Below the pieces are notes generated by a model. It had not been told where the DNA came from. It searched no databases and saw only the letters and a list, made by a program, of their open reading frames with translations. From a virus: DNA of 44,104 nucleotides. The stretch is taken from positions 1 to 44,104 of IMG/VR virus record IMGVR_UViG_3300042294_004018. One strand, 5' to 3'. Of the stretch, positions 1 to 44,104 are shown in pieces. Within the stretch, counting starts at the first letter, position 1. Each line of letters opens with the position of its first letter. The position numbers and the translations under genes were made by a program.

Positions 1-2
1 CA

Positions 3-542
3 CCGATTCCCTCTGAGTTGATCATGCCCCTGGGGGGCTTCTATGTGCGCGGCGGCCAGCTCGCCCTGGTGCCGGTGGTGTTGGCCGGGCTGCTGGGCAC
101 GGTGCTCGGCGCCCTTCCCTGGTACGGCATCGGGCGGCTGGTGAACGAGCAGCGGCTGGAGCGCTGGTTGGAGCGCCATGGCCGCTGGATCGGCATCAGC
201 CCCCAGGAACTGCAGCGCAGCCACACCTGGTTCAACCGCCATGGCACCGCCCTGGTCTTCTGGGGGCGGCTGATCCCTGGCATCCGCACCCTGATCTCGG
301 TGCCGGCCGGCATTGAGATGATGCCGTTCGTGCCTTTCCTGATCTGGACCACGGCCGGCAGTCTGATCTGGACCCTGCTGTTAACCCTGGCGGGTTTCGG
401 GCTTGGTGAGGCCTACACCAACGTGGAGGTGTGGCTTGATCCTGTGGCCAAGGTGATCAAGGTGCTGCTGGTGCTGGCCGTACTCGGCTTCGGTGTATGG
501 CTTGGGCTGCGCATCTGGAAGAAGCGGCAGGACAGCCACTGA
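3..542 (+). CDS. DedA-family membrane protein, 5'-truncated by the window edge
   Basis: The frame is open to the window start. The first residues, PIPSELIMPLGGF, match the conserved DedA motif (E..P.IPSE.IMP..G), so the true start lies upstream and 179 residues are visible. Further DedA features are the G.LPWYGIGR region, the arginine-containing FWGRLIPGIRTLISVPAG segment, and hydrophobic helices around residues 105-130 and 145-170, followed by a basic tail. DedA proteins are polytopic inner-membrane proteins linked to lipid scrambling and membrane homeostasis. This is a housekeeping chromosomal family, so it marks the left end as host DNA. It is convergent with the ssb gene on its right, with 132 bases between them. 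Confidence 0.9.
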   Translation, partial: PIPSELIMPLGGFYVRGGQLALVPVVLAGLLGTVLGALPWYGIGRLVNEQRLERWLERHGRWIGISPQELQRSHTWFNRHGTALVFWGRLIPGIRTLISVPAGIEMMPFVPFLIWTTAGSLIWTLLLTLAGFGLGEAYTNVEVWLDPVAKVIKVLLVLAVLGFGVWLGLRIWKKRQDSH

Positions 543-674
543 GGCCTTCTGATCCCGATTGGTGGCTTCGTGCCACTTGATGACCTGGCTGCGCGACTGG
601 CACAAGTCCGGCGGGCCTGTTCCGGCGTTCAGGGGCCTTCGCTCCCGACGCCGGTGGGCCCGGGAGCCAGGGCA

Positions 675-1361
675 TCAGAACGGCACTTCCTCCTCGCTGG
701 GTTCACCGCCGCCGTAGTTGCCGGCGCCGCCAAAACCGCCGCCCCCTTCGGCATCTCGCTTACTGCCCAGCAGCTCAAGTCGATCTACCCGGATTACGGG
801 TTTGGTGCGCTCCTCGCCGCTGCTGCGGTCGGTCCAGCGGTCGAGCTTGAAGGAGCCGATGATGCCCAACAATGAGCCCTTGCGGACATAGTCGGCTGCG
901 ACCTGGGCCTGTTTGCCCCAGATCTCGAGGTTGAACCAGTCGGGTTCATCGTCCCGGCTGCGGCGGTTTACCGCCAGGGTGAGGTTGGCGACCATGCTGC
1001 CGGACTCGAAGTAACGGACTTCGGGGTCGCGGCCGGCCCGGCCTACCAGGGCAACGGAATTGACGCCGGGGCGATCGAGGGGCATGGCGACCCGATGAAA
1101 GCCCTGTAGCTGAAACTCCGGCGGATTGCCTTGTTCAATCCCGAACCTGCCGGTGATAACCACCCAGGAGTCCTGCGTGAGGTTTGCCATCACGTCGGGC
1201 GCACGCTCGCCCCAAGCCGTCACTTGCAGCGGCATCGGGGGGTCTGTTTGTTTGTAGGGGGTGATCTCAACGTTGAAGGATGCCTGGCGTTGGCCACCAG
1301 CGGGAGGGGTAGAGAGTGCCGGCGGCGACGTGATGTAGGCCAGAAGAGTGATCGATTGCAT
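675..1361 (-). CDS. ssb: Two-domain single-stranded DNA-binding protein: Ycf41-like OB domain fused to canonical SSB
   Basis: This 228-residue protein binds ssDNA during replication and recombination. Residues 101-200 are a canonical cyanobacterial SSB OB fold (NSVALVGR, DPEVRYFESG, VANLTLAVNRRSR, DWFNLEIWGKQAQ, KLDRWTDRSSGEE), followed by a Gly-rich tail and the acidic tip PSEEEVPF used to recruit partners. A normal SSB would begin at the Met before NSV. Here that codon is GTC, and the frame continues upstream for 100 residues that form a second OB-like domain (QASFNVEI, DPPMPLQVTAWGERAPDV, WVVITGRF) resembling Ycf41-type proteins. Typical bacterial SSBs are shorter and have one OB domain. 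It is the last gene of the leftward recombination operon, 39 bases after the previous stop. Bases 799-925 (residues about 146-188) recur exactly at the right end of the window. The C-terminal part may be host-derived. Confidence 0.93.
   Translation of the reverse strand: MQSITLLAYITSPPALSTPPAGGQRQASFNVEITPYKQTDPPMPLQVTAWGERAPDVMANLTQDSWVVITGRFGIEQGNPPEFQLQGFHRVAMPLDRPGVNSVALVGRAGRDPEVRYFESGSMVANLTLAVNRRSRDDEPDWFNLEIWGKQAQVAADYVRKGSLLGIIGSFKLDRWTDRSSGEERTKPVIRVDRLELLGSKRDAEGGGGFGGAGNYGGGEPSEEEVPF
799..925. repeat. Exact 127-bp direct repeat, left copy (inside ssb)
   Basis: Every base from 799 to 925 matches 43978-44104 in the same orientation. Identity stops abruptly at base 798 versus 43977 (g versus c); beyond that point the two ssb genes are only related. 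On the other side the second copy runs into the window end, so the true length of identity is at least 127. See the finding on circular or integrated topology. Confidence 0.97.
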
Positions 1362-1400
1362 AGGGGGGATTCGATGGGATGAGATGGAATGGGGCAGCGA

Positions 1401-2204
1401 TCAATCCAGGCCAGGGATTGGGGCCTCGGCGGCAGGTGTGGCGGCAGGGCCCGACCGGCGGACCGGGGCAGGCGCGGACCGGCGGCCAGCTGCAGGGGCG
1501 GGTGCGGGTGCTGGCTGGGGGTCGGCGGTGGTGGCCGGGGCGGGCTGTTCCGGGCCGCTGGTGGGATCCGCTTCAGGCTTTGGATTGCAGCGCTTAACGG
1601 TCTGAGAGCTAACGCCCCGCCTGACGATCTCGGCCAGCGCCTCAAGCGTTACATCGCTCAGGTCGCTGGTGTTGCCCTGGGTTAATTCGAGCACAAAAGC
1701 AGTGATCCCGGCACTGGTCAGACCGGAACGGCGGCAGGCGTCGGCGGCGGATTGGATCAGGTCTGCGGCGGGCGGTGCTGCGGCAGCGGCTGGTGCTGGT
1801 GCTGCAGGGGCGGGAGCCTGTAGAGGGAGCACCTTGTACGGCAAGCGCTTGCCACGCGAGGCCGTGAGCATGACCGTCAGCGGCCCGTCTATATGCGACA
1901 GATGGGACAGCCGGATTCCGCCCACTTGCTGGCCGCCGTACATGGCCCCGGGTTCCCTGAAAATGGTGATTCCTCGTCCGACGTAGTGCGAAGAATCGGG
2001 GCCCCAAGCCTCTGCCAAGACTCGGCGCATGGACTTGCAGGGTCGCCAAGGTCTGCCGTTATCACCGTCAAAGTGGATCGCCACGGGCTGCTCTGATTTG
2101 AGAGCAACGTCTACCTTCGTAACCGTGATGGTGCGCGGGCCAACAATCAAATCATCGGCATTCATTTGGTCGGACTTTGGCGCCAGTGTTGCCGTAATGT
2201 CCAT
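1401..2204 (-). CDS. Conserved phage protein of recombination operon, unknown function
   Basis: 267 residues. The N-terminal 128 residues form a compact, Trp- and Gly-rich domain (NADDLIVGPRTITVTKVD, WRPCKSMRRVLAEAWG, YVGRGITIFREP, GGIRLSHLSHID). It is familiar from other siphophage hypothetical proteins (N-terminus of the type MD.T..LAPKSDQ.) usually coded next to exonuclease genes. Then come two Ala/Pro low-complexity linkers flanking a short helical module (residues about 148-205). The start overlaps the exonuclease stop by one base (TGATG), and ssb follows. Context suggests a role in homologous recombination or annealing, perhaps as the exonuclease partner, but no RecT, Beta or Erf motif is visible and the function is unassigned. 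Confidence 0.85.
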   Translation of the reverse strand: MDITATLAPKSDQMNADDLIVGPRTITVTKVDVALKSEQPVAIHFDGDNGRPWRPCKSMRRVLAEAWGPDSSHYVGRGITIFREPGAMYGGQQVGGIRLSHLSHIDGPLTVMLTASRGKRLPYKVLPLQAPAPAAPAPAAAAAPPAADLIQSAADACRRSGLTSAGITAFVLELTQGNTSDLSDVTLEALAEIVRRGVSSQTVKRCNPKPEADPTSGPEQPAPATTADPQPAPAPAPAAGRRSAPAPVRRSGPAATPAAEAPIPGLD

Positions 2205-2902
2205 CAGAAAATCTCCTGCTCAGGTTGGATAGGTTCGGTGGCCGGGAAAATGGCGGCTTTCGTGGTGTAAAGCTCCATCAGCATCCTTAGCTCGGCTTCA
2301 GCGGCCTGTGCTGCAGTGATCAGCTGGGCGATCACCACATCGTCACGCTCGCACCGGCGAACAAACAGCGGCAGGCCAGGGGCGTAACTGATGTAGTCAC
2401 ACCAGGCGCGGCCAGTGACAGCAAGGCCGGTCTGGACCTGCGGCACATACTCAGCTGGCACCTCATCACTGAGCAGCGAGCGGAGGTGGTGCTTCTGCCG
2501 GGGGCTCTTGATCTCAATCAGGCCTTGATCACCCACTAGCCCGTCGGGGCTGTAGCCAATCACGGTGCCGTCGAAATCAGCGGTGACGAATCCGCACTCC
2601 TGCACCGGTGCTCGGTGCTCGGCATAGATGTCACGGGCCAACGGTTCCAGCAAGTGCCCTCGGGCCATGTCGTCGCCGTAGAAACTGGCCTCGGTCTCAC
2701 CGGTGATCCGCTCGGCCAGCAGCTGCAGCAGCTGGCTGCGGCTGGTGTCGTTGTTGGCAGGTTTGCCGGTGCCGGTGATCAGCCTGCTGATCGTGCTGGC
2801 GGTGATCACGCCCCGGCGCAGCGCGTGCCATTCGTCGCTGCCTTGCTCGATGTTGCGGTGGTAGATGGGATCCGGGTGGCGGGGGTAGTCGGCGAGTTTC
2901 AT
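2204..2902 (-). CDS. YqaJ-type viral recombinase exonuclease (PD-(D/E)XK)
   Basis: 232 residues from the Met at 2902, which overlaps the upstream stop as ATGA; a longer in-frame start at 2941 is less likely. The family is a lambda-exonuclease-like 5'-3' dsDNA exonuclease that makes ssDNA for annealing. Visible motifs are Q20-GSDEW with HALRRGVITAS at the N-terminus, GHLLEPLAR with E86, D120 in GYSPDG, the LIEIKSP strand with E130 and K132 (the E-x-K catalytic pair), and YVPQVQTGLAVTG. The length is normal for the family. It belongs with the following gene and ssb in a phage recombination module. Confidence 0.92.
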   Translation of the reverse strand: MKLADYPRHPDPIYHRNIEQGSDEWHALRRGVITASTISRLITGTGKPANNDTSRSQLLQLLAERITGETEASFYGDDMARGHLLEPLARDIYAEHRAPVQECGFVTADFDGTVIGYSPDGLVGDQGLIEIKSPRQKHHLRSLLSDEVPAEYVPQVQTGLAVTGRAWCDYISYAPGLPLFVRRCERDDVVIAQLITAAQAAEAELRMLMELYTTKAAIFPATEPIQPEQEIF

Positions 2903-3237
2903 CGCACCACCGTCGGAGCCACAGCACTTCCCAAGGGGCATCGTGCGCGGCCCTGCTCAACCCCTACCGTGTAGGCCAGGGCAAAGGCAATCAGGGCCAG
3001 GACCGCTATCAGCTTGTAATGCGTAGGCTGGCCCAGGGCTCGGCGCTCACTAGCTGGAAGCTGCCGATCAGCGATGTTGCCCAGGCTAAGAGCTGCGACT
3101 CTTAGCGCATCAATTCGCTGGGCCTTGGCCATGGCCATCCAGGATGCACGAAGGCCCCCCAGGTGATACATCGTCGCGTCAAGGCGCTTGATGTCCAGGA
3201 ACTCAGCCAGTGACACACGATCAGATAGTCGATTCAT
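2899..3237 (-). CDS. Small single-pass membrane protein, unknown
   Basis: 112 residues. The N-terminal part is basic and helical (LAEFLDIKRLDATMYHLGGL). One clear transmembrane segment lies at about residues 74-93, followed by a short tail with one Cys. Both gene ends overlap the neighbours by ATGA, so it is translationally coupled between the 3234 gene and the exonuclease. No family recognised. Confidence 0.8.
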   Translation of the reverse strand: MNRLSDRVSLAEFLDIKRLDATMYHLGGLRASWMAMAKAQRIDALRVAALSLGNIADRQLPASERRALGQPTHYKLIAVLALIAFALAYTVGVEQGRARCPLGSAVAPTVVR

Positions 3238-3578
3238 GGCGTTGGAGGATTGGAGAGAATTGGGCTGAGTCCGGCGCCGAGCCGGATCAGGTGATGCACG
3301 GCTCTGGCATCGCTGGCCCCGCCATTGGCAGCGGCTACGGCTTCTACGGCAGAAACCGAATCCTTAAACCCAAGTGACGTGGCGCCCCGAAAAATCAGCG
3401 AGCGAAAGGCAGCCGCTTGAGTGGCGCTGGTCTGCTCCTGCAGTCGCTTTACCTGTTCGTATGCGTCTGCAGGCAGGTAAGCGTCCACAACGACCGAATT
3501 GCCGGCGGCGTCATAAATGGCGCCAGCAACCCGCTTGCCAGGGCCGGGGCGGGGCTTTGGGATCGGCTTCGTACTCAT
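3234..3578 (-). CDS. Unknown phage protein with possible RHH-like segment
   Basis: 114 residues from the Met at 3578, which overlaps the upstream stop as ATGA; that is why the longer in-frame starts were not used. A basic Pro-rich N-terminus (KPIPKPRPGPGKRV) precedes a beta strand and two helices (NSVVVDAYLPADAYEQVKRL, then SATQAAAFRSLIFRG). That order resembles a ribbon-helix-helix DNA-binding unit, but I cannot confirm it. Translationally coupled on both sides. Confidence 0.75.
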   Translation of the reverse strand: MSTKPIPKPRPGPGKRVAGAIYDAAGNSVVVDAYLPADAYEQVKRLQEQTSATQAAAFRSLIFRGATSLGFKDSVSAVEAVAAANGGASDARAVHHLIRLGAGLSPILSNPPTP

Positions 3579-3709
3579 GGCTGGCGCTGCTCGAACAACA
3601 GAGGCTGAGGCGGCGGCAGCGGGATCTGGGGGGCTCGAAGGGTTGCGCTGATCCATGCGATGCAGACCACGCCGGCGAGGAACACTCCCCCGGTGAATGG
3701 GAGGGTCAT
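3575..3709 (-). CDS. 44-residue membrane peptide
   Basis: This short gene sits between 3706 and 3578 and overlaps both neighbours by ATGA, the pattern used throughout this operon. The product starts MTLPFTGGVFLAGVVCIAWI, a hydrophobic N-terminal segment of about 20 residues, then a Pro/Gln-rich tail ending FEQRQP. It could be a small membrane effector. Unknown function; existence rests on the double overlap and the hydrophobic segment. Confidence 0.65.
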   Translation of the reverse strand: MTLPFTGGVFLAGVVCIAWISATLRAPQIPLPPPQPLLFEQRQP

Positions 3710-3987
3710 GGCTGGGATCTTCCCTGCAGCGTGACGGCGCCACCCTTGCCGGCTAGCAGGTCATGGGCGCCAGAAATCAAACCCTCCAGCGCCTTGAGAC
3801 CGCGCCACAGGTCTCGCGTTGCAAGCCGCTGGGGGTGATCAAACGGCAAGGCTATTCGGGCGTTATACGCGGACTGAAGTTCGTCAGCCACTACGGTTTG
3901 GGCATCGATTGCCCGTTGGAGCAGCTCGCGGTGCCGGGGGTCGGTGATCATGGGGATGGGGGGCGCACGGGTGTGGCGCGTTTCCAA
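3706..3987 (-). CDS. First gene of leftward operon, unknown helical protein
   Basis: 93 residues from 3987, or 81 from the internal Met at 3951 (MITDPRHREL), which may be the true start because the first 12 residues are Pro/Arg-rich and atypical. The rest is predicted helical (RELLQRAIDAQTVVADEL, RDLWRGLKALEGLISGAHDL) with a Gly-rich end. It is the promoter-proximal gene of the leftward operon, just beside the 10-bp iteron block, which makes it a candidate early or regulatory gene. No family recognised. Confidence 0.75.
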   Translation of the reverse strand: METRHTRAPPIPMITDPRHRELLQRAIDAQTVVADELQSAYNARIALPFDHPQRLATRDLWRGLKALEGLISGAHDLLAGKGGAVTLQGRSQP

Positions 3988-3990
3988 AAC

Positions 3991-4040
3991 TTACCACGGT
4001 TTGCCGTGGTTTGCCGTGGTTTGCCGTGGTTTGCCACGAA
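3991..4040. promoter_or_regulatory. 10-bp phased iteron/operator block in divergent control region
   Basis: The decamer TTGCCGTGGT occurs three times head to tail (4001-4030). It is flanked by mirror-image variants, TTACCACGGT at 3991 and TTGCCACGAA at 4031. The outer units make perfect inverted repeats with the inner ones (CCACGG-TTTG-CCGTGG at 3994-4009; CGTGG-TTTG-CCACG on the right). The spacing is one helical turn, so a bound protein would lie on one DNA face. It is located between the leftward operon (3987) and the rightward operon (4160). Confidence 0.75.
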
Positions 4041-4054
4041 ACAACCCCACCCCA

Positions 4055-4113
4055 TGACAATCTGTGAACCGTCACACCCCTAAGGCCACGTGGCGTTATC
4101 TACCGATTACATT
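4055..4113 (+). promoter_or_regulatory. 59-bp repeated promoter/operator element, copy A
   Basis: This 59-bp stretch aligns without gaps to 5582-5640 (49 of 59 bases identical), with an exact 22-base block at its 3' end (4092-4113). It lies 46 bases before the ATG at 4160; copy B lies 49 bases before an ATG. TACATT at 4108-4113 is a plausible -10 hexamer. TGTGA-ACCG-TCACA is a perfect palindrome inside copy A but only half-preserved in copy B. No good -35 is seen, so an activator-dependent promoter is likely. Confidence 0.7.
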
Positions 4114-4159
4114 CTGTTCGCCGGGGCGGAGATCCCCGGACCCAATCGCACCCCGCAGC

Positions 4160-4333
4160 ATGGACTACGAACTGCCTCACGCACACGCCTCCAACGCAGC
4201 TGATGAGCTGAAGGCCCTCCAGGCCACCGACCTTTGGCGAGAGCTACCAGCCGATGCGCAGATTGCACTCTCCAAAGCGCACGGCATCTTGATCGGACTG
4301 ACCGGCGCCATGGAGGCCGCCAGCCTGGTCTGA
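4160..4333 (+). CDS. Small unknown protein, first gene of cassette A
   Basis: 57 residues from the ATG at 4160, placed just downstream of the 59-bp element. Mostly helical (NAADELKALQATDLWREL, DAQIALSKAHGILIGL) with an acidic N-terminus; no Cys and no clear membrane segment. No Shine-Dalgarno is visible; the ATG is preceded by CCGCAGC, and the first genes of both cassettes have such a CAGC-type leader. Function unknown. Confidence 0.65.
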   Translation: MDYELPHAHASNAADELKALQATDLWRELPADAQIALSKAHGILIGLTGAMEAASLV

Positions 4334-4385
4334 TCGCTCCCCCACCATCGCCAGCCGGCTATAGGCGTTAAACCGAGCCGAACCG

Positions 4386-4413
4386 CCCCCAGTAGTCCGG
4401 GGGCAACCAACCA
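4386..4413 (+). other. Intergenic hairpin followed by CAACCAACC
   Basis: CCCCC (4386-4390) pairs with GGGGG (4399-4403) over an 8-base loop, followed by CAACCAACC. The loop has no T-run after it, so it is not an ordinary terminator. The trailing motif resembles the one after the covarying hairpins at 4719 and 5927, so this may be a third, divergent member of that leader family. Confidence 0.45.
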
Positions 4414-4432
4414 CCTCCGCCCTTAGCCAGCC

Positions 4433-14120: not shown

Positions 14121-14732
14121 ATGCCAACACCAATTCGCAGCCGCCAAGGGGCGGAAATGATCGAGACGGCGGTGGGGCCGGTAAGAAAGTGCAGTCGCCA
14201 AAATCTGGACAAGCTGTGCCGAGAGGGCGCCCTCCTGGGCAGCCCCTGCATCCTCAGGGCCAAGCCCCTGCTGCTCGATGCTGACATCTTGCTGGATGAG
14301 TACCTGGCCAGGGTGGCACCGTTTCAATCCGAGGCCAAGCAGCCCACGGCCAAGCGGGCTCAGCAGCCAGCAAGGCCCAGGCCATCCCGTACCCCGGTCA
14401 CTGACCTCGCCGACGATTTCCCAGAGCCTGAAGAAATCCCCAGCTACAACGACAGTCGGGCTCGATCCGAATTCGAGAAGGCCAATATCCTGGAAATGGA
14501 CCGCAAGGCCAAGGCGAACACACTGCTCCCCCGCGAGGAGGTGGGGCAGGCCTGGGACGCAGCGGTCAATATCACCCGCACCGTTTTGTTGGGGGTGCCG
14601 AGCAAGGCAAAACAAAGGATCCCGCACCTGACACCTGACGAGGTGGCGGTGCTGATGGACCTGATACGCGAGGCCTTGAGTGGTCTCGCTGCGGGCGACG
14701 TAATGGAGCTCTACCCAGAGTTTGAGCCTTGA
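14121..14732 (+). CDS. Terminase small subunit-like protein
   Basis: 203 residues from the ATG at 14121. The N-terminal region (SRQGAEMIETAVGPVRKCSR, DKLCREGALLG) looks like a DNA-binding helix-turn-helix of Nu1/DUF1441-type small terminases. A Pro/Ala linker is followed by a helical C-terminal half (FEKANILEMDRKAKANTLLP, EVGQAWDAAVNITRTVLLG). It recognises the packaging site and recruits the large subunit. The stop overlaps the large subunit start (TTGA). The repeat-rich region just upstream is its likely target. Confidence 0.8.
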   Translation: MPTPIRSRQGAEMIETAVGPVRKCSRQNLDKLCREGALLGSPCILRAKPLLLDADILLDEYLARVAPFQSEAKQPTAKRAQQPARPRPSRTPVTDLADDFPEPEEIPSYNDSRARSEFEKANILEMDRKAKANTLLPREEVGQAWDAAVNITRTVLLGVPSKAKQRIPHLTPDEVAVLMDLIREALSGLAAGDVMELYPEFEP

Positions 14733-16672
14733 CACTGCCAGCGGTGCAGGACCTGACGCGGCGCATCCTGGGCGGCTTCAAGCCACCTCCGAAGCTCCGG
14801 CTATCGGAATATGCGGACCAACCGGCCACAGTCGATGGCGGCGCGGTGATGACCGGCAACGCAGCAGAGAAGGGCCAGTGGCGGACGCTGCCGTATCAGC
14901 GGCCGATCCTGGATGCGTTCACTAACCCCAATGTTGAAACGGTGGTTTGCCTGAAGTCGGCTCGCGTCGGCTGGACAAAGATGCTGGGCGTTGTTGTTCA
15001 GTATTACTCGCACCATGATCCATGCCCGATCATGATTGTGCAGCCAGTAAAGGAAGACGCTGAAGGGTATAGCAAGGAAGAAATCAAGCCATTATTTGAG
15101 GATACGCCAGCGCTGCAGGGGCTGATAACTGAATCCAAAGCACGCAACACCAGCAGTAATACGATCCTACTGAAGCAGCTTAGCAATGGCGGTTTAATAG
15201 ATATAGTAAATGCTGCCAGTGGGCGGGCCTTTCGGCGCAAGTCTAGAAAGATTGTTCTCTTTGATGAGTTTGACGCTTATCGCAGAATTGACGAAGGAGA
15301 CGTTTACAAGCTAGGCCGCAACCGTGCTGATTACTACTGGGACCGCAAAATAGGCGTAGGCAGCACACCGATATTCAAGGATGGGCGAACAGAGGAATTA
15401 TACAAGAAATCAGATCAGCGAAAGTTCTTTGTCCCTTGCCCATTTTGCAATCACTATCAAATTTTGCGATGGGATCAAATGATAAAAAAGGGCGAATTTA
15501 TTGCCCATTACGAATGCGAAAATTGCAAAAAGCCGATCCCGCACAGCAAAAAACGCTGGATGGTTGAGCGCTGCGAGGATCGCCCGACCGCTGTTGCCCA
15601 GGTTCCTGGCCTTATTGGGTTTCATGTGTGGGCGGCCTACAGCTATTCACCTGCGGCGGACTGGGCAATTCTGGTTCGTGAATACGACGAGGCCTTGGAA
15701 TCGTTGCGCAAGGGCGACCCAGAGCCGATGCAGACCTTCAAAAATACGGTGCTCGGCGAAGGTTGGGAGGACTCGCAGGCCGGCAAGGTCTCGGCCGACA
15801 ACCTGGCCAAGCGCCGGCAGTCTGTTGATCTGGGCAATGGCTATTCGATTCTTGGCGAAGACTTCACCCTGACCGGCGTGCCTAATGGCGTGCTGTTGAT
15901 CACCGCTGGAGTGGACACCCAGGGCGGTGGCGGCACGGCAAACGAGCGGCTGGTGGCCACCGTCTGGGGCTGGGGCGTTGGGGAGGAGGGCTGGCACCTG
16001 GGCCATTGGGACATCGATGGCGACCCCCAGGACAAAAATACCCTCGCGCAATTGGACCGGATCGCCGAAACCAAATGGATTCGAGAAGATGGGACCGTGC
16101 TCAAGTTGGCGCGAGGCGGCATTGATGAAGGTGGCGATGCAACCAGTTGCCAAGCGGTCCGCGAGTTTTGCTCAACCCGTAAGGACACTTGGGTGCCAGT
16201 TCGAGGGGCTCCGCAAAAGGGCAAACCACTGTTAGGCAGGGGCGTGCCGGTAAGTATCAACCGCAAAAACAAGCCGATCGTAAAAAACGGGGTCAACCTG
16301 TTTTTTGTGGGCTATGACGAAAGCGTCAAGTCATTGCAGTATCGGTTGGGAGTTGAGACCGTGGGCCCTGGCTACCTGCATTTTGGCCTGTGCACAACTG
16401 ATCAATTCTTGGCGGAGCTGTTCCCTTGGAGGCGGATGCCGCGGCGGAGCAGGAGCCAGATCAGCTATCACTGGGAGGCACCAACCGGGGCGCGAGATGA
16501 GGGGGGCGACTGCACTCGCTACGCCTATGCGGTGCTGCAGCTGGTGTCCCGCCGCTACACCCCAGGCACCATGTGGGCCCAGCTCGCCCGCAGCCTGGGC
16601 ACCCAGGCGCCGGGGACGGGAGGGGGAGGGGGAGGGGCTAATAGGTTTGGCACTGGCGGGCGCTTTGGGTGA
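14729..16672 (+). CDS. Terminase large subunit, GpA family
   Basis: 647 residues with a TTG start overlapping the TerS stop. ATPase domain: Walker A-like LKSARVGWTK (75-84) and Walker B IVLFDE (175-180). A zinc-finger-like insert has C237/C240 and C263/C266 (CPFC, CENC). The nuclease part has ITAGVDTQG with D396 and GGIDEGGDA. The C-terminus is Gly-rich. It cuts concatemers and drives DNA into the prohead, as in lambda gpA. Length is typical of the family. Confidence 0.95.
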   Translation: MTLPAVQDLTRRILGGFKPPPKLRLSEYADQPATVDGGAVMTGNAAEKGQWRTLPYQRPILDAFTNPNVETVVCLKSARVGWTKMLGVVVQYYSHHDPCPIMIVQPVKEDAEGYSKEEIKPLFEDTPALQGLITESKARNTSSNTILLKQLSNGGLIDIVNAASGRAFRRKSRKIVLFDEFDAYRRIDEGDVYKLGRNRADYYWDRKIGVGSTPIFKDGRTEELYKKSDQRKFFVPCPFCNHYQILRWDQMIKKGEFIAHYECENCKKPIPHSKKRWMVERCEDRPTAVAQVPGLIGFHVWAAYSYSPAADWAILVREYDEALESLRKGDPEPMQTFKNTVLGEGWEDSQAGKVSADNLAKRRQSVDLGNGYSILGEDFTLTGVPNGVLLITAGVDTQGGGGTANERLVATVWGWGVGEEGWHLGHWDIDGDPQDKNTLAQLDRIAETKWIREDGTVLKLARGGIDEGGDATSCQAVREFCSTRKDTWVPVRGAPQKGKPLLGRGVPVSINRKNKPIVKNGVNLFFVGYDESVKSLQYRLGVETVGPGYLHFGLCTTDQFLAELFPWRRMPRRSRSQISYHWEAPTGARDEGGDCTRYAYAVLQLVSRRYTPGTMWAQLARSLGTQAPGTGGGGGGANRFGTGGRFG

Positions 16673-37295: not shown

Positions 37296-37515
37296 GGCCT
37301 CGACCTCGAATAATTGGATGGTGCCGAACCTCACGCTAGAGGCTGAATCAGACCTGGAACGGGGCCGCATGATGCTGCAACAGATGACCCCAGAGCAGGT
37401 GTTGGCCCAGGCTCACGTGCTGCTCAAGCAGTCGGTAACGAATGGCGTGATCATCCGCCAGGCCGCCCAGCGCATCTGCGAACTGGAGGCCCGTGCTGCG
37501 GTTCGGGAGGGGTGA
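37294..37515 (+). CDS. NblA-like phycobilisome-degradation protein (tentative)
   Basis: 73 residues. Residues 13-46 show L-T-L-E (13-16), L21, M31-T-P-E-Q (31-35), L43 and Q46. This spacing equals the NblA pattern L-S-L-E-x4-L-x9-M-S-x-E-Q-x7-L-x2-Q. NblA proteins are about 60-residue adaptors that hand phycobilisomes to the Clp protease, and freshwater cyanophages carry nblA genes. Departures are the missing aromatic residue after LxLE and a longer C-terminal helix (RQAAQRICELEARA). It is divergent from the 37023 gene and convergent with the methyltransferase. Confidence 0.45.
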   Translation: MASTSNNWMVPNLTLEAESDLERGRMMLQQMTPEQVLAQAHVLLKQSVTNGVIIRQAAQRICELEARAAVREG

Positions 37516-38493
37516 TCACGCCACCGGCCCCGCTGAGGCGAATAGGTCGGGTTGGTGGCCGGCGGCTTGGGCTCTGCTGATTCGCTGCTGGGCGATGGCG
37601 TGGTAGTCCGGGTTGATCTCACTGCCCTCAAAGTCACGTCCCAGGAGCAGCGCTTGCTCACCCACGGTGCCGCTTCCTGTGAATGGGTCATAGACCACGC
37701 CTCCTTTTGGGCAACCAGCCAGGATGCACGGCTCAACCAGCTCCGGGGGCATGACAGCGAAATGGGCGCCATTGAATGGTTTGGTGGCAATGGTCCACAC
37801 ATCGCGGCGATTGCGGTCAGGTCCTCGCCCAACAGATGCCATGTCCCTGCCATCTCGCTTTGCTGGCCCCCCTGCGGATTCCCGAAAGTGCCCAGCACCA
37901 CGGAAGCAATTTGAGCCACTTGATTTGCCCATAGAGCTTGCTGGCTCTTTTATCGCATCCGCGTCGTAGTAATACCTTGCCGATTTTGACAACAGGAAAA
38001 CATATTCATGCGCCTTTGTGCAGCGGTCCGTAACGCTCTCAGGCATCGAGTTTGGCTTGTGCCAGATGATGTCCTGCCGCAGATACCAGCCGTCAGCTTG
38101 CAAGGCAAAGGCGACGCGCCACGGAATGCCGACTAGGTCTTTGTTTTTAAGGGTTGCCGCAGTCAGCCCTTGCCGGTGCTTGGGATGGTCACGCCCCGCA
38201 GTCCCGTCGCTGATGGAAGTTGACGCCCCACGGTTGGCGTTATAGGCGTTGTACGAATCCCCAAGATTCAGCCACAGCGTCCCGTCATTCCGCAGCACCC
38301 GGCGGACCTCGCGGAACACTTCCACCATGCGGGCCACGTATTCTTCCGGCGTGGCCTCCATGCCGATCTGCCCATCGTGGCCATAGTCCCGCAGTCCCCA
38401 GTAAGGCGGGCTGGTGACACAGCAATGGACCGACGCATCTGCCATGGTGCGCAACACCTCCAGGCAGTCGCCAAGGTGCAAGGTGCTGGTCAT
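37516..38493 (-). CDS. Orphan DNA methyltransferase, beta class (N4-cytosine or N6-adenine)
   Basis: 325 residues from the Met at 38493, which overlaps the tmk stop as ATGA. HLGDCLEVLRTM, then motif IV TSPPYWGLRDYG (27-38) come before the FTGSG SAM-binding motif (271-275), the beta-class order. TSPPY fits N4-cytosine or N6-adenine methylation. No restriction enzyme gene lies nearby, so it is an orphan that probably protects phage DNA from host restriction. Confidence 0.88.
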   Translation of the reverse strand: MTSTLHLGDCLEVLRTMADASVHCCVTSPPYWGLRDYGHDGQIGMEATPEEYVARMVEVFREVRRVLRNDGTLWLNLGDSYNAYNANRGASTSISDGTAGRDHPKHRQGLTAATLKNKDLVGIPWRVAFALQADGWYLRQDIIWHKPNSMPESVTDRCTKAHEYVFLLSKSARYYYDADAIKEPASSMGKSSGSNCFRGAGHFRESAGGPAKRDGRDMASVGRGPDRNRRDVWTIATKPFNGAHFAVMPPELVEPCILAGCPKGGVVYDPFTGSGTVGEQALLLGRDFEGSEINPDYHAIAQQRISRAQAAGHQPDLFASAGPVA

Positions 38494-39146
38494 GCCCTTC
38501 CCCCAAACTGGCGGACCATGGCGCGGCAACAGGCCTCCGTCACGGCAGCTACGGGCTTGCCTGCATCAATGCGGGCCCAGTCTCGTTGGTCGGCCAGGCG
38601 TTCAAATCCATGAGCTACGCGGGCCAGGAACGCCACCCCCTCCTCCTCAAGGCGATCGGCCAGTTGCTCGCGTCGCCGCCAGCATGAATCAATCAGGGAC
38701 ACATCCAGCCAGAGGGTGAGATCAGCCTGCAGGGTGCCTGTGGTCAGGGTTTCCAGCGTGTCAAGCAGGGCCACAGGCCAGCCCCTGCCATAGCCCTGAT
38801 AGGCGGCGGTCGATCCGGTGAACCGATCACACAGCACCCAATCCCCGGCATCGAGCGCCGGCCGCAAAACCGTTTCGACATGCTGGGCACGATCGGCGGC
38901 ATAGAGCAGCAGCTCAGCACGCGGCACGGGAGCAGCTTTGCCAGGAGGGTGCAGCAGCAGCTCCCTCAGTGCCTGGCCCAATGCCGTGCCGCCAGGCTCA
39001 CGGCTCACAACCACGCGGGCGCCAGGGGGCAGCAGGCCGCTGCTGGGCAGCCATTGGCGCAAGGCCTCCAGTTGGGTGGTCTTGCCGCAGCCGTCGATGC
39101 CCTCCAGGACGATGAACCGGCCACGGGCTGGGGTGGTGTCACTCAT
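38490..39146 (-). CDS. tmk: Thymidylate kinase
   Basis: 218 residues. P-loop GIDGCGKTT (16-24), SREPGGT, the DRF motif in CDRFTGSTAAYQGYGRG and the arginine-rich lid (WRRREQLADRLEEEG) define dTMP kinase (dTMP to dTDP). It overlaps the dcd stop and the methyltransferase start by ATGA. Together with dcd it raises dTTP supply. Possibly host-derived. Confidence 0.92.
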   Translation of the reverse strand: MSDTTPARGRFIVLEGIDGCGKTTQLEALRQWLPSSGLLPPGARVVVSREPGGTALGQALRELLLHPPGKAAPVPRAELLLYAADRAQHVETVLRPALDAGDWVLCDRFTGSTAAYQGYGRGWPVALLDTLETLTTGTLQADLTLWLDVSLIDSCWRRREQLADRLEEEGVAFLARVAHGFERLADQRDWARIDAGKPVAAVTEACCRAMVRQFGGRA

Positions 39147-39784
39147 ACCCTTGCCACCACCACGCGTTCAGGCTGGTTCTGGTATTTCCCTGCCCGGTCC
39201 TGATAGGTCGTCTCGCAGGGATCCCCCTCGAAGAAGAGCAGCTGGCAGATCCCCTCCTCCGCGTAGATGCGGCAGTCGGCGCCGGAGGAATTGCTGAACT
39301 CCAGGGTTAGATGCCCCTCCCATGCCGCCTCTGCTGGTGTCATGTTGGCAATGATTCCCAGCCTGGCGTAGGTGCTTTTGCCCAGACAGATCACGGTGAT
39401 ATTGGGCGGCACCCGGATCTTTTCGAGCGCCACCCCCAGCCCGTAAGTGTGGGCCGGCAGGATGAAAAATCGGCCGTCTTCATCCTCGTGCAGGGGGGCG
39501 GGCTCCAGGTTGTGGGGGTTGGGCCGTTTGGGGTTCATAACCGTGCCGGGGACATGGCGGAAGGTCAAAAATTCCTGGGCCGACAGCCGGATGTCGTAGC
39601 CGTAGGAGGAGCAGCCATAACTGAGCACCGGAACCTCGGCTGGCGGCCAATCAAGATCCAGGAGCGAGGCGCGTTCGCTCTGGAAGCGCTCGGCCAGTTC
39701 TACCCTCCGCACCAGCTTCGCCTGAAAGGGCTCGATCATGCCGGCGGCGGCCTGGGCTCTGATCCAGCGATCGTTTTTCAGCAT
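39143..39784 (-). CDS. dcd: dCTP deaminase
   Basis: 213 residues. YGCSSYGYDIRLS, the nucleotide-binding GKSTYARLGI, the active-site region WEGHLTLEFSN with its Glu, and the C-terminal DRAGKYQNQ define dCTP deaminase (dCTP to dUTP). The N-terminus up to about residue 50 is longer than in the E. coli enzyme, as in cyanobacterial forms. No dUTPase or ThyX gene is seen here, so the host must finish the route. Coupled to tmk by ATGA and to the 39778 gene by a seven-base overlap. Confidence 0.93.
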   Translation of the reverse strand: MLKNDRWIRAQAAAGMIEPFQAKLVRRVELAERFQSERASLLDLDWPPAEVPVLSYGCSSYGYDIRLSAQEFLTFRHVPGTVMNPKRPNPHNLEPAPLHEDEDGRFFILPAHTYGLGVALEKIRVPPNITVICLGKSTYARLGIIANMTPAEAAWEGHLTLEFSNSSGADCRIYAEEGICQLLFFEGDPCETTYQDRAGKYQNQPERVVVARV

Positions 39785-41085
39785 TGGGGGTCAGGGGTGA
39801 GGGTGAATGGAGGCGTCCAGGGCAGGGGGATGGCATTGCAAGGAAGCCAGTGGGTGGCATCTTCTGCCCATTCCAAAGGCTCAAAGCTCCACCAGGGCAC
39901 CCCCCCTAGCAGCCGCGGGGGATTGAAGCACCAGCACTTCCCGATGGTTGCGCCCTCATTGAACAGGCAATCTTTAGCTTCCGGACGCCGCTCACTCACC
40001 GCCACCGGCACAGCCACCTCCCCAGCCTGGGCCTCCACCCCAACGCCATACACCGCTCTGGTCTGCGAATCCCAGGGCCCAATCGCCGCTCGCCGGAGCA
40101 CGCCCACGACCGTATCAATCGCGCCATGCCAGGCCTCCCCCTCTGTCCCACTATGGCCGCCTGAGTAATCGTGGCAGCCCTGGGCCAGGCGAACGGCGTC
40201 TAGGTATGTGGGGCCAGGCGCAACCCGCAGGGCGGCCAGCTCGGCCTCCTGCTGCTCCAGCAAGATCGCGGCGCCTTGGACGTGGGGCGCTCCTGTCACG
40301 CCGTTGTCAACCAAATACTGGGCGACTTGGTTTAACCATTCCACCAACTCCACCACCTCCCCCGGCTCCGGCGCCGGCGGGGTGGCGGGGGTGCCACAGC
40401 GAGCAAGGCGCTCGTTCATTCCCTGTTGGCACGCAGCCTTGGCATCGTCCACGGAATTGAACGCCGCGTACCAGTCCCCCCAGGGCGTCTCATCAACAGT
40501 TGGGCTATCGTATTCCTTCCAGCCTTTCCAAGTAATAAGGAATCGACCGAACGGTGTTTCGGCAATGCAATGGTCGTATCTACACGCTTCGCTGGGTGGC
40601 ATGTTATCGGTCCATTGAAGACGTGGCCCCTCCCCCTCCGGGGATGGCGGGGTGGCGGGGTTTTCCCCAGGCGCTGGAGCTGCTGCATGGGGGTGCCCCT
40701 GGCGAGCAAGAATGGCGCGGGCTTCACTCCATCCGTCTTCGACTCCTTCGCGCCATGCGCTGCGGTACTGCATCGCCATGGTCGTAGGGATGTTCGGCGG
40801 ATCAACTGGCAGCAGGTCCGCTGCACTCGGCGACTCCCCCTGTGGCTCAGCCTTCAAAGCGGCGGCATGTCGATCAGCCTTGATCGCTAGGGCCTGGGCC
40901 CAGGCCAGTTGCTCACAGGAGTCCAGCGACTCCCACTGGTTGTGCTCGTCGGCCTGTTGATTCCATCGCTGGCGTAGATCGTCCTCTGATAGCGGGCCAG
41001 GGGGGATGTCGTCAGATGTCCGGGCGGGGCGGGGCGTGGTCATGGGGTCCTGATGGGTGATTTGGATTCGATCGGGCATGGTCAT
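39778..41085 (-). CDS. Multidomain unknown phage protein with DUF551-like end
   Basis: 435 residues; the start at 41085 overlaps the upstream stop by ATGA, an internal Met lies at 41043. An N-terminal helical region (WESLDSCEQLAWAQALAIKA) is followed by a domain with TPFGRFLITWKGWKEYDSPT and WYAAFNSVDDAKAACQ, then a helical region and a C-terminal part resembling DUF551 (SERRPEAKDCLFNEG, THWLPCNAIPLP). Modular accessory phage protein; function unknown. Confidence 0.75.
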   Translation of the reverse strand: MTMPDRIQITHQDPMTTPRPARTSDDIPPGPLSEDDLRQRWNQQADEHNQWESLDSCEQLAWAQALAIKADRHAAALKAEPQGESPSAADLLPVDPPNIPTTMAMQYRSAWREGVEDGWSEARAILARQGHPHAAAPAPGENPATPPSPEGEGPRLQWTDNMPPSEACRYDHCIAETPFGRFLITWKGWKEYDSPTVDETPWGDWYAAFNSVDDAKAACQQGMNERLARCGTPATPPAPEPGEVVELVEWLNQVAQYLVDNGVTGAPHVQGAAILLEQQEAELAALRVAPGPTYLDAVRLAQGCHDYSGGHSGTEGEAWHGAIDTVVGVLRRAAIGPWDSQTRAVYGVGVEAQAGEVAVPVAVSERRPEAKDCLFNEGATIGKCWCFNPPRLLGGVPWWSFEPLEWAEDATHWLPCNAIPLPWTPPFTLTPDPQC

Positions 41086-41879
41086 CTGCGGGCCTGCCTT
41101 TCAAGCCATTCGGCCGCGTCCCATGCGCTGCGGTTGAAGCTCGACTGGGCGCATTGCCAGTTCCGCAGCGAAGAAGCTATTTCGCGGATCGCAAGACGGG
41201 CGCCAAGGGGGTCTTCAGGATCTGGAACAAGCAAGCCTGGGCCGCCAGGGGTTGAAGTTTTGTCTAGAAATATTTGCTCAATCCGTTCCGCCAACCCCTC
41301 AGCGTACGCATCAGGTGAGGGTGTTGGGGCGGCCGGTGCTAGGGCTGCCGGTGATAAGTCCGATGTCCGGATCCCGTGCTGCCGCATCGCTGGGCAAATG
41401 GCGGCAAGGGCCTCGGTGCAGCGTGCCTCAGCCCAGTGCAGACAGCCAACGGCGTGGGGCGAGACCGCCTCCCCCTCGGCAACATCCGCCAGGGCGGATT
41501 CGGCCACCAGCAGGGCATTAACAACCGGGCCGGCATCCACCGGGGCGGCGTTAAACGCTTTGGCCCAGTCCTGGACCGTCAGACCAGCCTTAGACGCGTA
41601 GTCGGTGATGTGCTGCGCGACGTCAGCAATTGAGTCGGATTCCGTGGCCTCGGCATCCTCGTCCCGCTGGCGCAGGTTGGCCCCACGTTCCAGGGCCGCC
41701 AGGCGCCGGCAGAGCGCGGCGATGGTTTTGGAGTAGCTGTCCACGAATACTGCAACATCTTGATCGCGCTTATCGGCGCGGTCGATCAGGTGCAGCAAAA
41801 CCTGAGCGTCACGCTGGCCGGCATCGGCGGCATGGTTGAGCCAGGCTAGGGTTTGGGAAGGAAGGGGAAGGGGGGTCAT
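41082..41879 (-). CDS. Unknown helical phage protein
   Basis: 265 residues from the Met at 41879 (MTPLPLPSQTLAWLNHAADA), overlapping the upstream stop by ATGA. Mostly helical (TIAALCRRLAALERGANLRQ, DYASKAGLTVQDWAKAFNA), with a Pro/Ala linker and a final helix WDAAEWLERQARR. No family recognised. The longer reading to 42098 runs through the neighbouring gene and was not used. Confidence 0.7.
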   Translation of the reverse strand: MTPLPLPSQTLAWLNHAADAGQRDAQVLLHLIDRADKRDQDVAVFVDSYSKTIAALCRRLAALERGANLRQRDEDAEATESDSIADVAQHITDYASKAGLTVQDWAKAFNAAPVDAGPVVNALLVAESALADVAEGEAVSPHAVGCLHWAEARCTEALAAICPAMRQHGIRTSDLSPAALAPAAPTPSPDAYAEGLAERIEQIFLDKTSTPGGPGLLVPDPEDPLGARLAIREIASSLRNWQCAQSSFNRSAWDAAEWLERQARR

Positions 41880-42286
41880 AATTGGTCTTCGGTGGTGAGT
41901 TGATCGCGTTTCGCTATGTGATCGGGCAGGGGCGGCAGGGGGCCGGCCATGCCGTTGTCGGTGGCCCAGAGGTAAACACCCCTTACCACTTCGCTGTCGT
42001 AATCCTGACCGGCGTAATAACACACCAGCCGCCGCAGCGCCTCCCTGGCCGTCGCCAGTTCCCCCCGCAGTTCCCGCACGCATTCTGGGCAGCCCCAAGC
42101 GTTAGGTGGTTGCTGCCCGTGTGTGGGGCAGTAGCAAAGTCTGATGCGGCTTAATTCGGTGCGCTCTGCATCTCTCCAGAAGGCGCCCAAAAGCTTATTT
42201 GCTGCGTTCAACTCATCCTCCAGCCTGCGGATCGTCCGCCAGGGGGTCAGCCAGCGGGTGAGGGTGTGAAGGGTTAGGCCGGTCAT
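41876..42286 (-). CDS. Unknown protein with zinc-finger-like Cys cluster
   Basis: 136 residues from the Met at 42286 (MTGLTLHTLTRWLTPWRTIR). A coiled coil (RRLEDELNAANKLLGAFW) precedes LCYCPTHGQQ and WGCPECVREL, a C-x-C ... C-x2-C arrangement that may bind zinc. ATGA overlaps on both sides. Confidence 0.7.
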   Translation of the reverse strand: MTGLTLHTLTRWLTPWRTIRRLEDELNAANKLLGAFWRDAERTELSRIRLCYCPTHGQQPPNAWGCPECVRELRGELATAREALRRLVCYYAGQDYDSEVVRGVYLWATDNGMAGPLPPLPDHIAKRDQLTTEDQL

Positions 42287-42543
42287 GGCAGTTCGTTGGC
42301 AAAATAGTCGCGTGAGGTTTGAGCACGTACACAAAATCGGCGCTGACTGCCAATATCGTCAACAGGGCAGACCGTCACAGTTTCAGGCGTTACGTCTAGC
42401 GTGTAATCCCAGCCTTCACTTTCAGCGCAATGGGCCCACTGTTCAACTGCGCTTTGAGCGTCGGTTGCTTTGAACCTTCTGCCATCGTCGGGCCCCTCGT
42501 CCCCGCCTCCTGGATTCCAGACGATCCAGTCGTTTGTGGTCAT
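42283..42543 (-). CDS. Unknown small acidic protein
   Basis: 86 residues from the Met at 42543 (MTTNDWIVWNPGGGDEGPDD). It has a beta-like second half (YTLDVTPETVTVCPVDD). Coupled by ATGA overlaps on both sides. Function unknown. Confidence 0.7.
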   Translation of the reverse strand: MTTNDWIVWNPGGGDEGPDDGRRFKATDAQSAVEQWAHCAESEGWDYTLDVTPETVTVCPVDDIGSQRRFCVRAQTSRDYFANELP

Positions 42544-42737
42544 GGTTGAAACCTCGCGTGATAAATAGTCAGAGCAGTGCAAATGCAGGTCAAAATACCA
42601 AACACAAATGCAATTAAATTGTCATCAAAAATAAAAGCAAACCCAGTAATCAAATTGGCGGCGCTCATGGGAATTACCCATGGGTTTCGCTTGCCTGGTG
42701 GCATGGGTGGTCGGGGGAAGTAGAAGGGGCCGGTCAT
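42540..42737 (-). CDS. Small membrane protein
   Basis: 65 residues from the Met at 42737. A Pro-rich start (FYFPRPPMPPGKRNPW) is followed by one or two hydrophobic segments (NLITGFAFIFDDNLIAFVFG, ILTCICTALTIYHA). The coding sequence is AT-rich. Coupled by ATGA overlaps on both sides. Function unknown. Confidence 0.65.
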   Translation of the reverse strand: MTGPFYFPRPPMPPGKRNPWVIPMSAANLITGFAFIFDDNLIAFVFGILTCICTALTIYHARFQP

Positions 42738-43174
42738 GGTTCCATCCCCGCCAGATGCCTGACAGCCCAGGCCCGCACCCTCTCCCATCGCTGGCGGCGG
42801 GCGGATTCCATGTTGCTATCCGATAAACCTTCATTGACCTCAACGACTTCCCAGGCCAGTGCCGGGGCAACGTCGAACGGCTCCGCAAAATGCGGGGGAT
42901 CGAGGTCTTCCTCCATCGGGTCAAAGTACAGCGGCACAGCTGCCGCCCCCCGGTAGCGACGAACCGCCCCGAACGCACAGCAACAGCCGGTCGCTTCGTC
43001 CTCCAGGGCGCCGGCGGATAGCTCGGGGCTGGGCAGGGCGTTGAGCCCCGCCACCAGATCGCGCAACAGCCGCTGGCCGCGTTGGCCACGGATGGCGGAT
43101 CGCAGGGCCCCGGCTTGCTGGCCCTCCATCCAGGGTTCGGCGTCGCCATAGTCGTCTTGGTAGAGGCGGCTCAT
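42734..43174 (-). CDS. Conserved phage protein, unknown
   Basis: 146 residues: MSRLYQDDYGDAEPWMEGQQ, then GALRSAIRGQRGQRLLRDLV, AGLNALPSPELSAGALEDEA and CCCAFGAVRRY. This pattern (AIRGxRGQ..L..L...L.ALP..RL) is familiar from phage hypothetical proteins of early operons (from memory). The start overlaps the 43171 stop by ATGA. Function unknown. Confidence 0.75.
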   Translation of the reverse strand: MSRLYQDDYGDAEPWMEGQQAGALRSAIRGQRGQRLLRDLVAGLNALPSPELSAGALEDEATGCCCAFGAVRRYRGAAAVPLYFDPMEEDLDPPHFAEPFDVAPALAWEVVEVNEGLSDSNMESARRQRWERVRAWAVRHLAGMEP

Positions 43175-43833
43175 GGCTCCACCCCCAGCGCCCGCAGAAT
43201 CGCGGTGCGCTCGTCTGAGCGGCCACGGTCGTAGAGGGCGCGGCGTGCGTCTTCATACGTGCGGGGGGGGATCCACACATAGGCCAGCTCCTCATCCGTC
43301 GCCACCGGCTCGGCGCCAGGCGGCGGGATCTGGAGGGATTGGGACTGCTGCTGGCGGGCCCAGGCGATGGCCAATCGAGCCATGGTGGTGGAAGCGTTTA
43401 TGTGATAGCCGCTGGCGGTGTGCACGCGACGGGCTTCCCCCACCCATTGCTCCATCAGCTCGTCGCTCGGCATCTCAGCCGGGGCTGGGGCCGCTGCAGC
43501 GTCGTCCAATATCTCCGCTGGCATTACCGGCAGATCAGCCAGGTCATCGGGTAGGCGGGGTGGGGCCGGGCCAGGATCACGGTCGACATAGATCAGCCGC
43601 CCACCAGTGGGTTGAGGTTTGGTGGGGGGACCGGAGGGGGCTGCCGGCTTGTTGCCAGGCGCGGGAGGATTGGAACCACGGCGGCGAGCGATCTCGCGGT
43701 CAAGATCGTCGTCAAAATCACTGGGTGGCGGGTTCGGTGTGCCCCCGTGGGAGCAGGGCTGGTAGCCGCCATTGACCCTGACCGTGCCTTTCTGGGGCTG
43801 TAAAAGCCCCTTGATCCAGGTGAAAAGTTTCAT
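43171..43833 (-). CDS. Unknown Pro-rich protein downstream of ssb
   Basis: 220 residues. MKLFTWIKGLLQPQKGTVRV, a Pro/Ala-rich disordered middle, then an ordered helical C-terminal part (ASTTMARLAIAWARQQQSQS, ATDEELAYVWIPPRTYEDAR). Its ATG overlaps the ssb stop (TGATG), so it is translated together with SSB. Function unknown. Confidence 0.7.
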   Translation of the reverse strand: MKLFTWIKGLLQPQKGTVRVNGGYQPCSHGGTPNPPPSDFDDDLDREIARRRGSNPPAPGNKPAAPSGPPTKPQPTGGRLIYVDRDPGPAPPRLPDDLADLPVMPAEILDDAAAAPAPAEMPSDELMEQWVGEARRVHTASGYHINASTTMARLAIAWARQQQSQSLQIPPPGAEPVATDEELAYVWIPPRTYEDARRALYDRGRSDERTAILRALGVEP

Positions 43834-44104
43834 CAGAATGGGATGTCATCGTCTTCTGGTTGGCCGCCAAGGGGTGCCGCGTTCCATGGCTGAGCGGACT
43901 CACCACCACGCACCGGGCCCCCACTCTCAGCCTCTCGCCGCCCCCCCAGCAGCTCCAGACGGTCAACCGTGATCACCGGTTTGGTGCGCTCCTCGCCGCT
44001 GCTGCGGTCGGTCCAGCGGTCGAGCTTGAAGGAGCCGATGATGCCCAACAATGAGCCCTTGCGGACATAGTCGGCTGCGACCTGGGCCTGTTTGCCCCAG
44101 ATCT
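43833..44104 (-). CDS. ssb: Second ssb gene, 5' part beyond the window
   Basis: 90 codons visible, ending in the acidic tip PEDDDIPF. Residues encoded by 43978-44104 are identical to the left ssb; the C-terminal linker differs (RGGESAQPWNAAPLGG here, Gly-rich in the left copy). Its stop overlaps the next gene, so this copy belongs to the phage leftward operon. If the genome is circular, its 5' part is the 5' part of the left ssb (926-1361). Confidence 0.93.
   Translation of the reverse strand, partial: IWGKQAQVAADYVRKGSLLGIIGSFKLDRWTDRSSGEERTKPVITVDRLELLGGRREAESGGPVRGGESAQPWNAAPLGGQPEDDDIPF
43978..44104. repeat. Exact 127-bp direct repeat, right copy at window end
   Basis: Identical in order and orientation to 799-925 and terminated by the window edge. 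Its length equals the common maximum assembly k-mer. Confidence 0.97.

What the first reader, a model, noticed from the sequence alone, without database searches (positions are those of the whole stretch)
43978..44104. Window ends in a 127-bp repeat of 799-925: likely a circular 43,179-bp phage with a host branch in ssb
Seen: 43978-44104 equals 799-925 base for base and stops matching at 798/43977. Known: 127 is the usual largest k in de Bruijn assemblers, and a contig ends with the k-mer at which two paths merge. Inference: the phage path 43977->799 closes a circle of 43,179 bp. The circle would join the leftward genes 3987-799 and 43977-37516 into one operon of overlapping genes with ssb in the middle. 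Bases 1-798 (DedA gene plus an ssb 3' end with another C-terminal tail) would be host DNA. Either the phage is integrated by recombination inside ssb, or the assembler joined host and phage through a shared stretch. Both imply very recent exchange of ssb between phage and host.
Basis: partly seen in the sequence, partly recalled or inferred. Interest (0 to 1): 0.88.

Follow-up and report, generated by a model that had tools for sequence, protein, structure and literature searches.

The report
Circular cyanophage joined to host ssb
[quoted passage not shown] that points to a recent gene exchange.

Summary

(1) Circle. About ten relatives carry ssb inside the operon, joining homologs of the window's two ends. 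A close relative (43,742 bp) has an exact 127-bp terminal repeat, giving a 43,615-bp circle.

(2) Bases 1-798 are host chromosome. DedA and the ssb 3' end match picocyanobacterium L003 at 98% and 94%, in the host order mreB-ssb-dedA.

(3) A k=127 toy graph yields a host unitig ending at base 925 and a loop unitig ending in the same 127-mer. The window is their concatenation. The same graph arises whether the phage is free or integrated, so only reads can decide. With no integrase, no copy in host genomes and an empty ssb locus in L003, I favour an assembly join.

(4) The phage ssb is a fusion: a phage-only OB domain plus a cyanobacterial SSB. Its core (799-1043) is 98.8% identical to host L003, against 94% or less to other phages, and is mosaic. 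Phage tmk and dcd are only 77-79% identical to host. Exchange of ssb is therefore recent, though its exact age and length are unknown.

The parts
1..798 (.). Host (picocyanobacterial) chromosome fragment: 3' part of dedA plus intergenic DNA plus 3' end of host ssb
   Evidence: 98.0% to L003 over DedA 3-542, 93.0% over the alignable 114 bp of the intergenic stretch, 94.4% over ssb tail 675-798; host order mreB-ssb-dedA in bacterial genomes
3..542 (+). dedA (VTT domain) gene, 5' end cut by the record start; host gene
   Evidence: Pfam PF09335 1.1e-21; 98.0% identity to L003
675..798 (-). host ssb C-terminal part (tail ...GGGEPSEEEVPF)
   Evidence: 94.4% to L003; the phage's own tail, shared with L083 and L088, is different
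799..925 (.). Branch 127-mer (V): shared by host ssb and phage ssb; first copy
43978..44104 (.). Same 127-mer, second copy: last bases of the record, closes the phage circle
799..1043 (-). Host-like ssb core tract in the phage ssb (98.8% to host L003 over 246 nt)
1064..1361 (-). Phage-only N-terminal OB domain of the fused SSB
   Evidence: absent from host loci and from 50,697 phage records; OB-type strand order in the model; present in 10 IMG/VR relatives
43833..43977 (-). True phage ssb 3' end (tail ...GGQPEDDDIPF), contiguous with 799-1361 in the circle
   Evidence: 94.5% to L083 and 93.8% to L088; reading frame continues without break
1401..2204 (-). Gene upstream of ssb, phrog_11517, function unknown (candidate recombination partner)
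2204..2941 (-). YqaJ/RecE-like recombination exonuclease
   Evidence: PF09588 1.7e-22, phrog_149 exonuclease
37516..43833 (-). Rest of the leftward operon downstream of ssb once the circle is closed (ORFs of unknown function, dCTP deaminase, thymidylate kinase, DNA methyltransferase)
   Evidence: order kept in relatives

Best explanation
The record is a lariat contig. Its body is a complete circular map (43,179 bp) of a cyanophage whose terminase resembles that of Synechococcus phage S-LBS1. Its stem (1-798) is a scrap of the chromosome of a co-sampled picocyanobacterium, very close to L003. The two meet at a 127-mer that both carry inside ssb, so a k=127 assembler walked from the host ssb 3' end into the phage and stopped when the circle came back to the same k-mer (k inferred). 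The shared stretch exists because the phage ssb is a fusion of a phage-specific N-terminal OB domain with a cyanobacterial SSB, whose core (799-1043) was recently replaced by, or captured from, a host ssb of this clade. The replacement was probably by homologous recombination or annealing; the phage's own YqaJ/RecE-type exonuclease is encoded two genes away. Shown: repeat, synteny, host identity, mosaic core, absence of an integrase match. Inferred: assembler path, direction host to phage, role of the phage recombination genes.
For: Exact 127-bp repeat, two copies. G010 carries an exact 127-bp DTR and G005 a 123-bp one; G011 has a near-exact 188-bp terminal repeat. Window 736-4421 and 37500-44104 lie on either side of a continuous ssb in relatives L083-L094. 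1-798 matches host L003, with ssb and dedA convergent and mreB upstream. In the toy graph the host unitig 1-925 and the loop unitig both end in V. V differs from host L003 at 1/127 sites and from most other phages at 11-19/127; phage L088 differs at 2. In the tree the window core lies beside L003 (path 0.015) within a starred phage-plus-host clade (99/93). Permutation test of mosaicism, L003 x L086 or L094, p<=5e-5. No PF00589 or PF00239 match. The phage tail is seen independently in L083 and L088.
Against: The k-mer graph of a phage integrated by a single crossover inside ssb is identical to that of a free circle plus host, so integration is not excluded. The AU test does not reject a single clade of phage ssb cores (p=0.325), so the number of transfers is not settled. 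Part of the core (949-1043) is also identical to phage L083, so not every base need come straight from the host. Reads and depth were not available.
Confidence: 0.88

Rival explanations
1. The phage is really integrated in part of the host population by a single homologous crossover within ssb, making host-phage and phage-host hybrid ssb genes at the two ends.
For: Same graph expected; at least 127 bp of identity for a crossover; YqaJ/RecE-like exonuclease beside ssb.
Against: No integrase or resolvase match; no close TerL match in 400 host-family genomes; no fused ssb among the best 80 loci of 84,980 species genomes; L003 locus uninterrupted; the contig holds only 798 bp of host DNA.
Confidence: 0.05
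2. The record is a linear fragment and the repeat is a real 127-bp duplication in one molecule, for example a phage with two ssb 3' ends.
For: The record as stored is linear and bears two ssb 3' ends.
Against: 1-798 has the gene content and order of bacterial chromosomes; relatives have one ssb within a continuous operon; the repeat is exactly a usual k and sits at the record end.
Confidence: 0.02
3. The phage ssb core is an old phage allele and the host (and L003, L007) received it from phage.
For: Phage cores and the L003/L007/L056 hosts form one supported clade (99/93).
Against: The L003 host keeps the native mreB-ssb-dedA locus and a host tail; the clade sits within cyanobacterial ssb diversity with host L069 next to it; no host locus carries the phage N-terminal domain.
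Confidence: 0.1

Closest known systems
Synechococcus phage S-LBS1 (MG271909, freshwater cyanosiphovirus, PMC6157547)
   Same: Large terminase 69% identical over 96% of its length; ssb next to an annealing gene; structural and replication modules separate
   Different: S-LBS1 has an integrase and a single-OB-size SSB (147 aa), 34.6 kb; its integrase does not match the window
k-mer-sized terminal overlap of circular contigs in de Bruijn assemblies
   Same: Repeat length equals k; relative G010 shows the plain form with 127 bp at both ends
   Different: Here one copy lies 798 bp inside the contig because a host branch was prefixed (lariat)
Host-gene capture and intragenic recombination in cyanophages (known for psbA, from general knowledge; PMC3900582 treats psbA divergence, only its search entry was seen here)
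   Same: Mosaic between host and phage alleles of one gene
   Different: The gene is ssb, a replication gene, and only the OB core is host-like; the phage keeps its own N-terminal domain and tail
Two-OB SSBs of Thermus/Deinococcus (PDB 2fxq, 2cwa, 1se8)
   Same: Two OB domains in one chain; best fold matches of the model
   Different: The phage protein is a fusion with a cyanobacterial-type SSB; model confidence is moderate (mean pLDDT 62.5)

Membership tests
Complete circular phage map | Ends overlap by k and close a circle | tested here: met
Complete circular phage map | Closure restores the gene order seen in relatives | tested here: met
Complete circular phage map | Reads span the closure | not testable with these tools
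   no reads held
Prophage integrated in ssb | Site-specific recombinase encoded (expected of site-specific prophages; a homologous single crossover would not need it) | tested here: not met
   no PF00589 or PF00239 match at E<=1
Prophage integrated in ssb | Host DNA on both sides of the phage | tested here: not met
   host DNA at the left end only; right end closes on 799-925
Prophage integrated in ssb | Same insertion found in host genomes | tested here: not met
   no fused ssb among the best 80 loci; no close TerL in 400 genomes
SSB family (PF00436) | SSB OB domain above Pfam cut-off | tested here: met
   111 bits against cut-off 26, residues 100-198
SSB family (PF00436) | Acidic C-terminal tip ending in PF | tested here: met
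   phage DDDIPF, host EEEVPF
Two-OB SSB (Deinococcus-Thermus type) | Two OB folds in one chain | tested here: inconclusive
   model shows two sets of OB-type strands and best hits are Thermus/Deinococcus SSB, but pLDDT is 62.5 and the N-terminal part gives only a sub-threshold OB match in Pfam
Two-OB SSB (Deinococcus-Thermus type) | Homodimer with four OB folds that binds ssDNA | not testable with these tools
   needs purified protein

The most novel reading that the evidence does not exclude
This phage group keeps a phage-specific OB domain and tail but repeatedly refreshes the cyanobacterial SSB core from its current host by recombination, making ssb a standing exchange point between phage and host.
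Probability: 0.3. Interest if true: 0.6.

Novelty: new variant of a known kind. Interest (0 to 1): 0.42.

Why it matters
It shows how a k-mer-length repeat inside a contig can reveal both a complete phage genome and its host in one record: the joined host scrap names the host clade without CRISPR or culture. It also turns up an unusual phage SSB, a phage OB domain fused to a cyanobacterial SSB whose core is near-identical to a living host clade. This is a testable case of recent phage-host recombination in a replication gene. For databases, the first 798 bases should not be annotated as viral, and the genome should be listed as a 43,179-bp circle.

Tried and rejected
Apparent two-domain ssb in bacterial genomes L081, L015 and L024: rejected, because the extra stretch is chance alignment in upstream DNA, with a stop codon inside in each. 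DNA comparison of the window's first 8 kb with phage isolates: only weak hits, Rhodococcus REQ2 exonuclease region and S-H1. Single origin of phage cores versus several: AU test undecided, p=0.325. Permutation tests against L092 and L093 gave no signal, because the window matches the host almost everywhere. A tRNA as integration site: none in the window. Papers on phage ssb conversion by the host: nothing specific found in the search lists.

Full report
Observation. Bases 43978-44104 equal 799-925 exactly, and the 127-mer occurs nowhere else in the window. Left of the junction the two sequences are 41/60 identical and then unrelated. The window is a whole virus record of 44,104 bases.

Circle. 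In relatives L083-L094 a continuous ssb connects homologs of window 1400-4400 on one side with homologs of 43833-37516 on the other. Complete relatives with this ssb keep that order. G010 (43,742 bp) ends in an exact 127-bp terminal repeat, G005 in 123 bp and G016 in 69 bp. G011 has a near-exact 188-bp repeat whose first 127 bases are identical. The phage ssb made by joining 43833-43977 to 799-1361 is one open frame ending in DDDIPF. Its tail is present in phages L083 and L088 at about 94%. The closure is therefore genuine phage sequence and not an assembler invention.

Host stem. DedA 3-542 is 98.0% identical to Synechococcaceae MAG RE-18aug17-136 (L003), and the host ssb tail 675-798 is 94.4% identical. 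In bacterial genomes dedA follows ssb in convergent orientation, and mreB lies divergently upstream of ssb (read in L081; mreB named from its sequence, my own knowledge). Bases 1-798 are therefore chromosomal DNA of a co-sampled picocyanobacterium.

Assembly path. A toy graph at k=127, made from pieces around ssb, gives a host unitig 1-925 ending in the 127-mer and a phage loop unitig ending in the same 127-mer. The window equals host unitig plus loop. If the host path stops inside the shared stretch, this contig needs no paired-read support at all (case C). The overlap is always exactly k, so 127 does not measure the length of homology. A phage integrated by a single crossover in ssb gives the identical set of unitigs, so the sequence alone cannot exclude it. 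Against integration: no tyrosine integrase and no resolvase match; no close terminase in 400 genomes of the host family; no fused ssb among the best 80 loci of 84,980 species genomes.

ssb. Residues 100-198 are a Pfam SSB domain, cyanobacterial in sequence. Residues 1-99 have no counterpart in host loci or in 50,697 phage records, but are present in ten IMG/VR relatives. The predicted model repeats the OB strand order in both halves, and its best solved matches are the two-OB SSBs of Thermus and Deinococcus, though confidence is moderate.

Recent exchange. Over 246 nt of the core the window differs from host L003 at 3 sites (98.8%), while the nearest phage (L088) is 93.6% identical over the 264-nt core and the next 89.8%. 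In 799-925 it differs from L003 at 1 site, from phage L088 at 2, and from the other phages of the group at 11-19. A permutation test for mosaicism rejects chance for L003 with L086 or L094 (p<=5e-5). The tree puts the window beside L003 in a supported clade that mixes phages with three hosts. The other host-like genes of the phage, tmk (about 38518-39126) and dcd (39143-39784), are only 77-79% identical to the host at DNA level, so the ssb core is by far the freshest. The 949-1043 part is identical to phage L083, so phage-to-phage exchange may have contributed too.

Mechanism, inferred. A YqaJ/RecE-like exonuclease lies two genes upstream of ssb. Phage-encoded Rad52-like recombinases recombine diverged DNA (PMC3945230, abstract). 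Annealing between phage DNA and host ssb is the likely route. An annealing protein was not identified; phrog_11517 at 1401-2204 is only a candidate, on the strength of a weak local match to the S-LBS1 annealing protein.

Verdict. The join is most likely an assembly lariat and not a prophage. The biological point is recent ssb exchange in a phage with an unusual fused SSB.

Noticed in passing
38490-39784 (-): Thymidylate kinase and dCTP deaminase genes of the phage are 77-79% identical in DNA to genes of the putative host clade: older host-gene captures in the same operon.
   Followed up: partly
14729-16672 (+): Lambda gpA-type large terminase, 69% identical to Synechococcus phage S-LBS1; TerL varies strongly (29-97%) among relatives whose replication genes are alike, so the packaging module is also exchanged.
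   Followed up: partly
1064-1361 (-): Phage-only OB domain fused to a cyanobacterial SSB; no match in 50,697 phage records.
   Followed up: partly
1401-2204 (-): phrog_11517 protein of unknown function between the exonuclease and ssb, with a weak local match to the S-LBS1 annealing protein; candidate recombination mediator.
   Followed up: no
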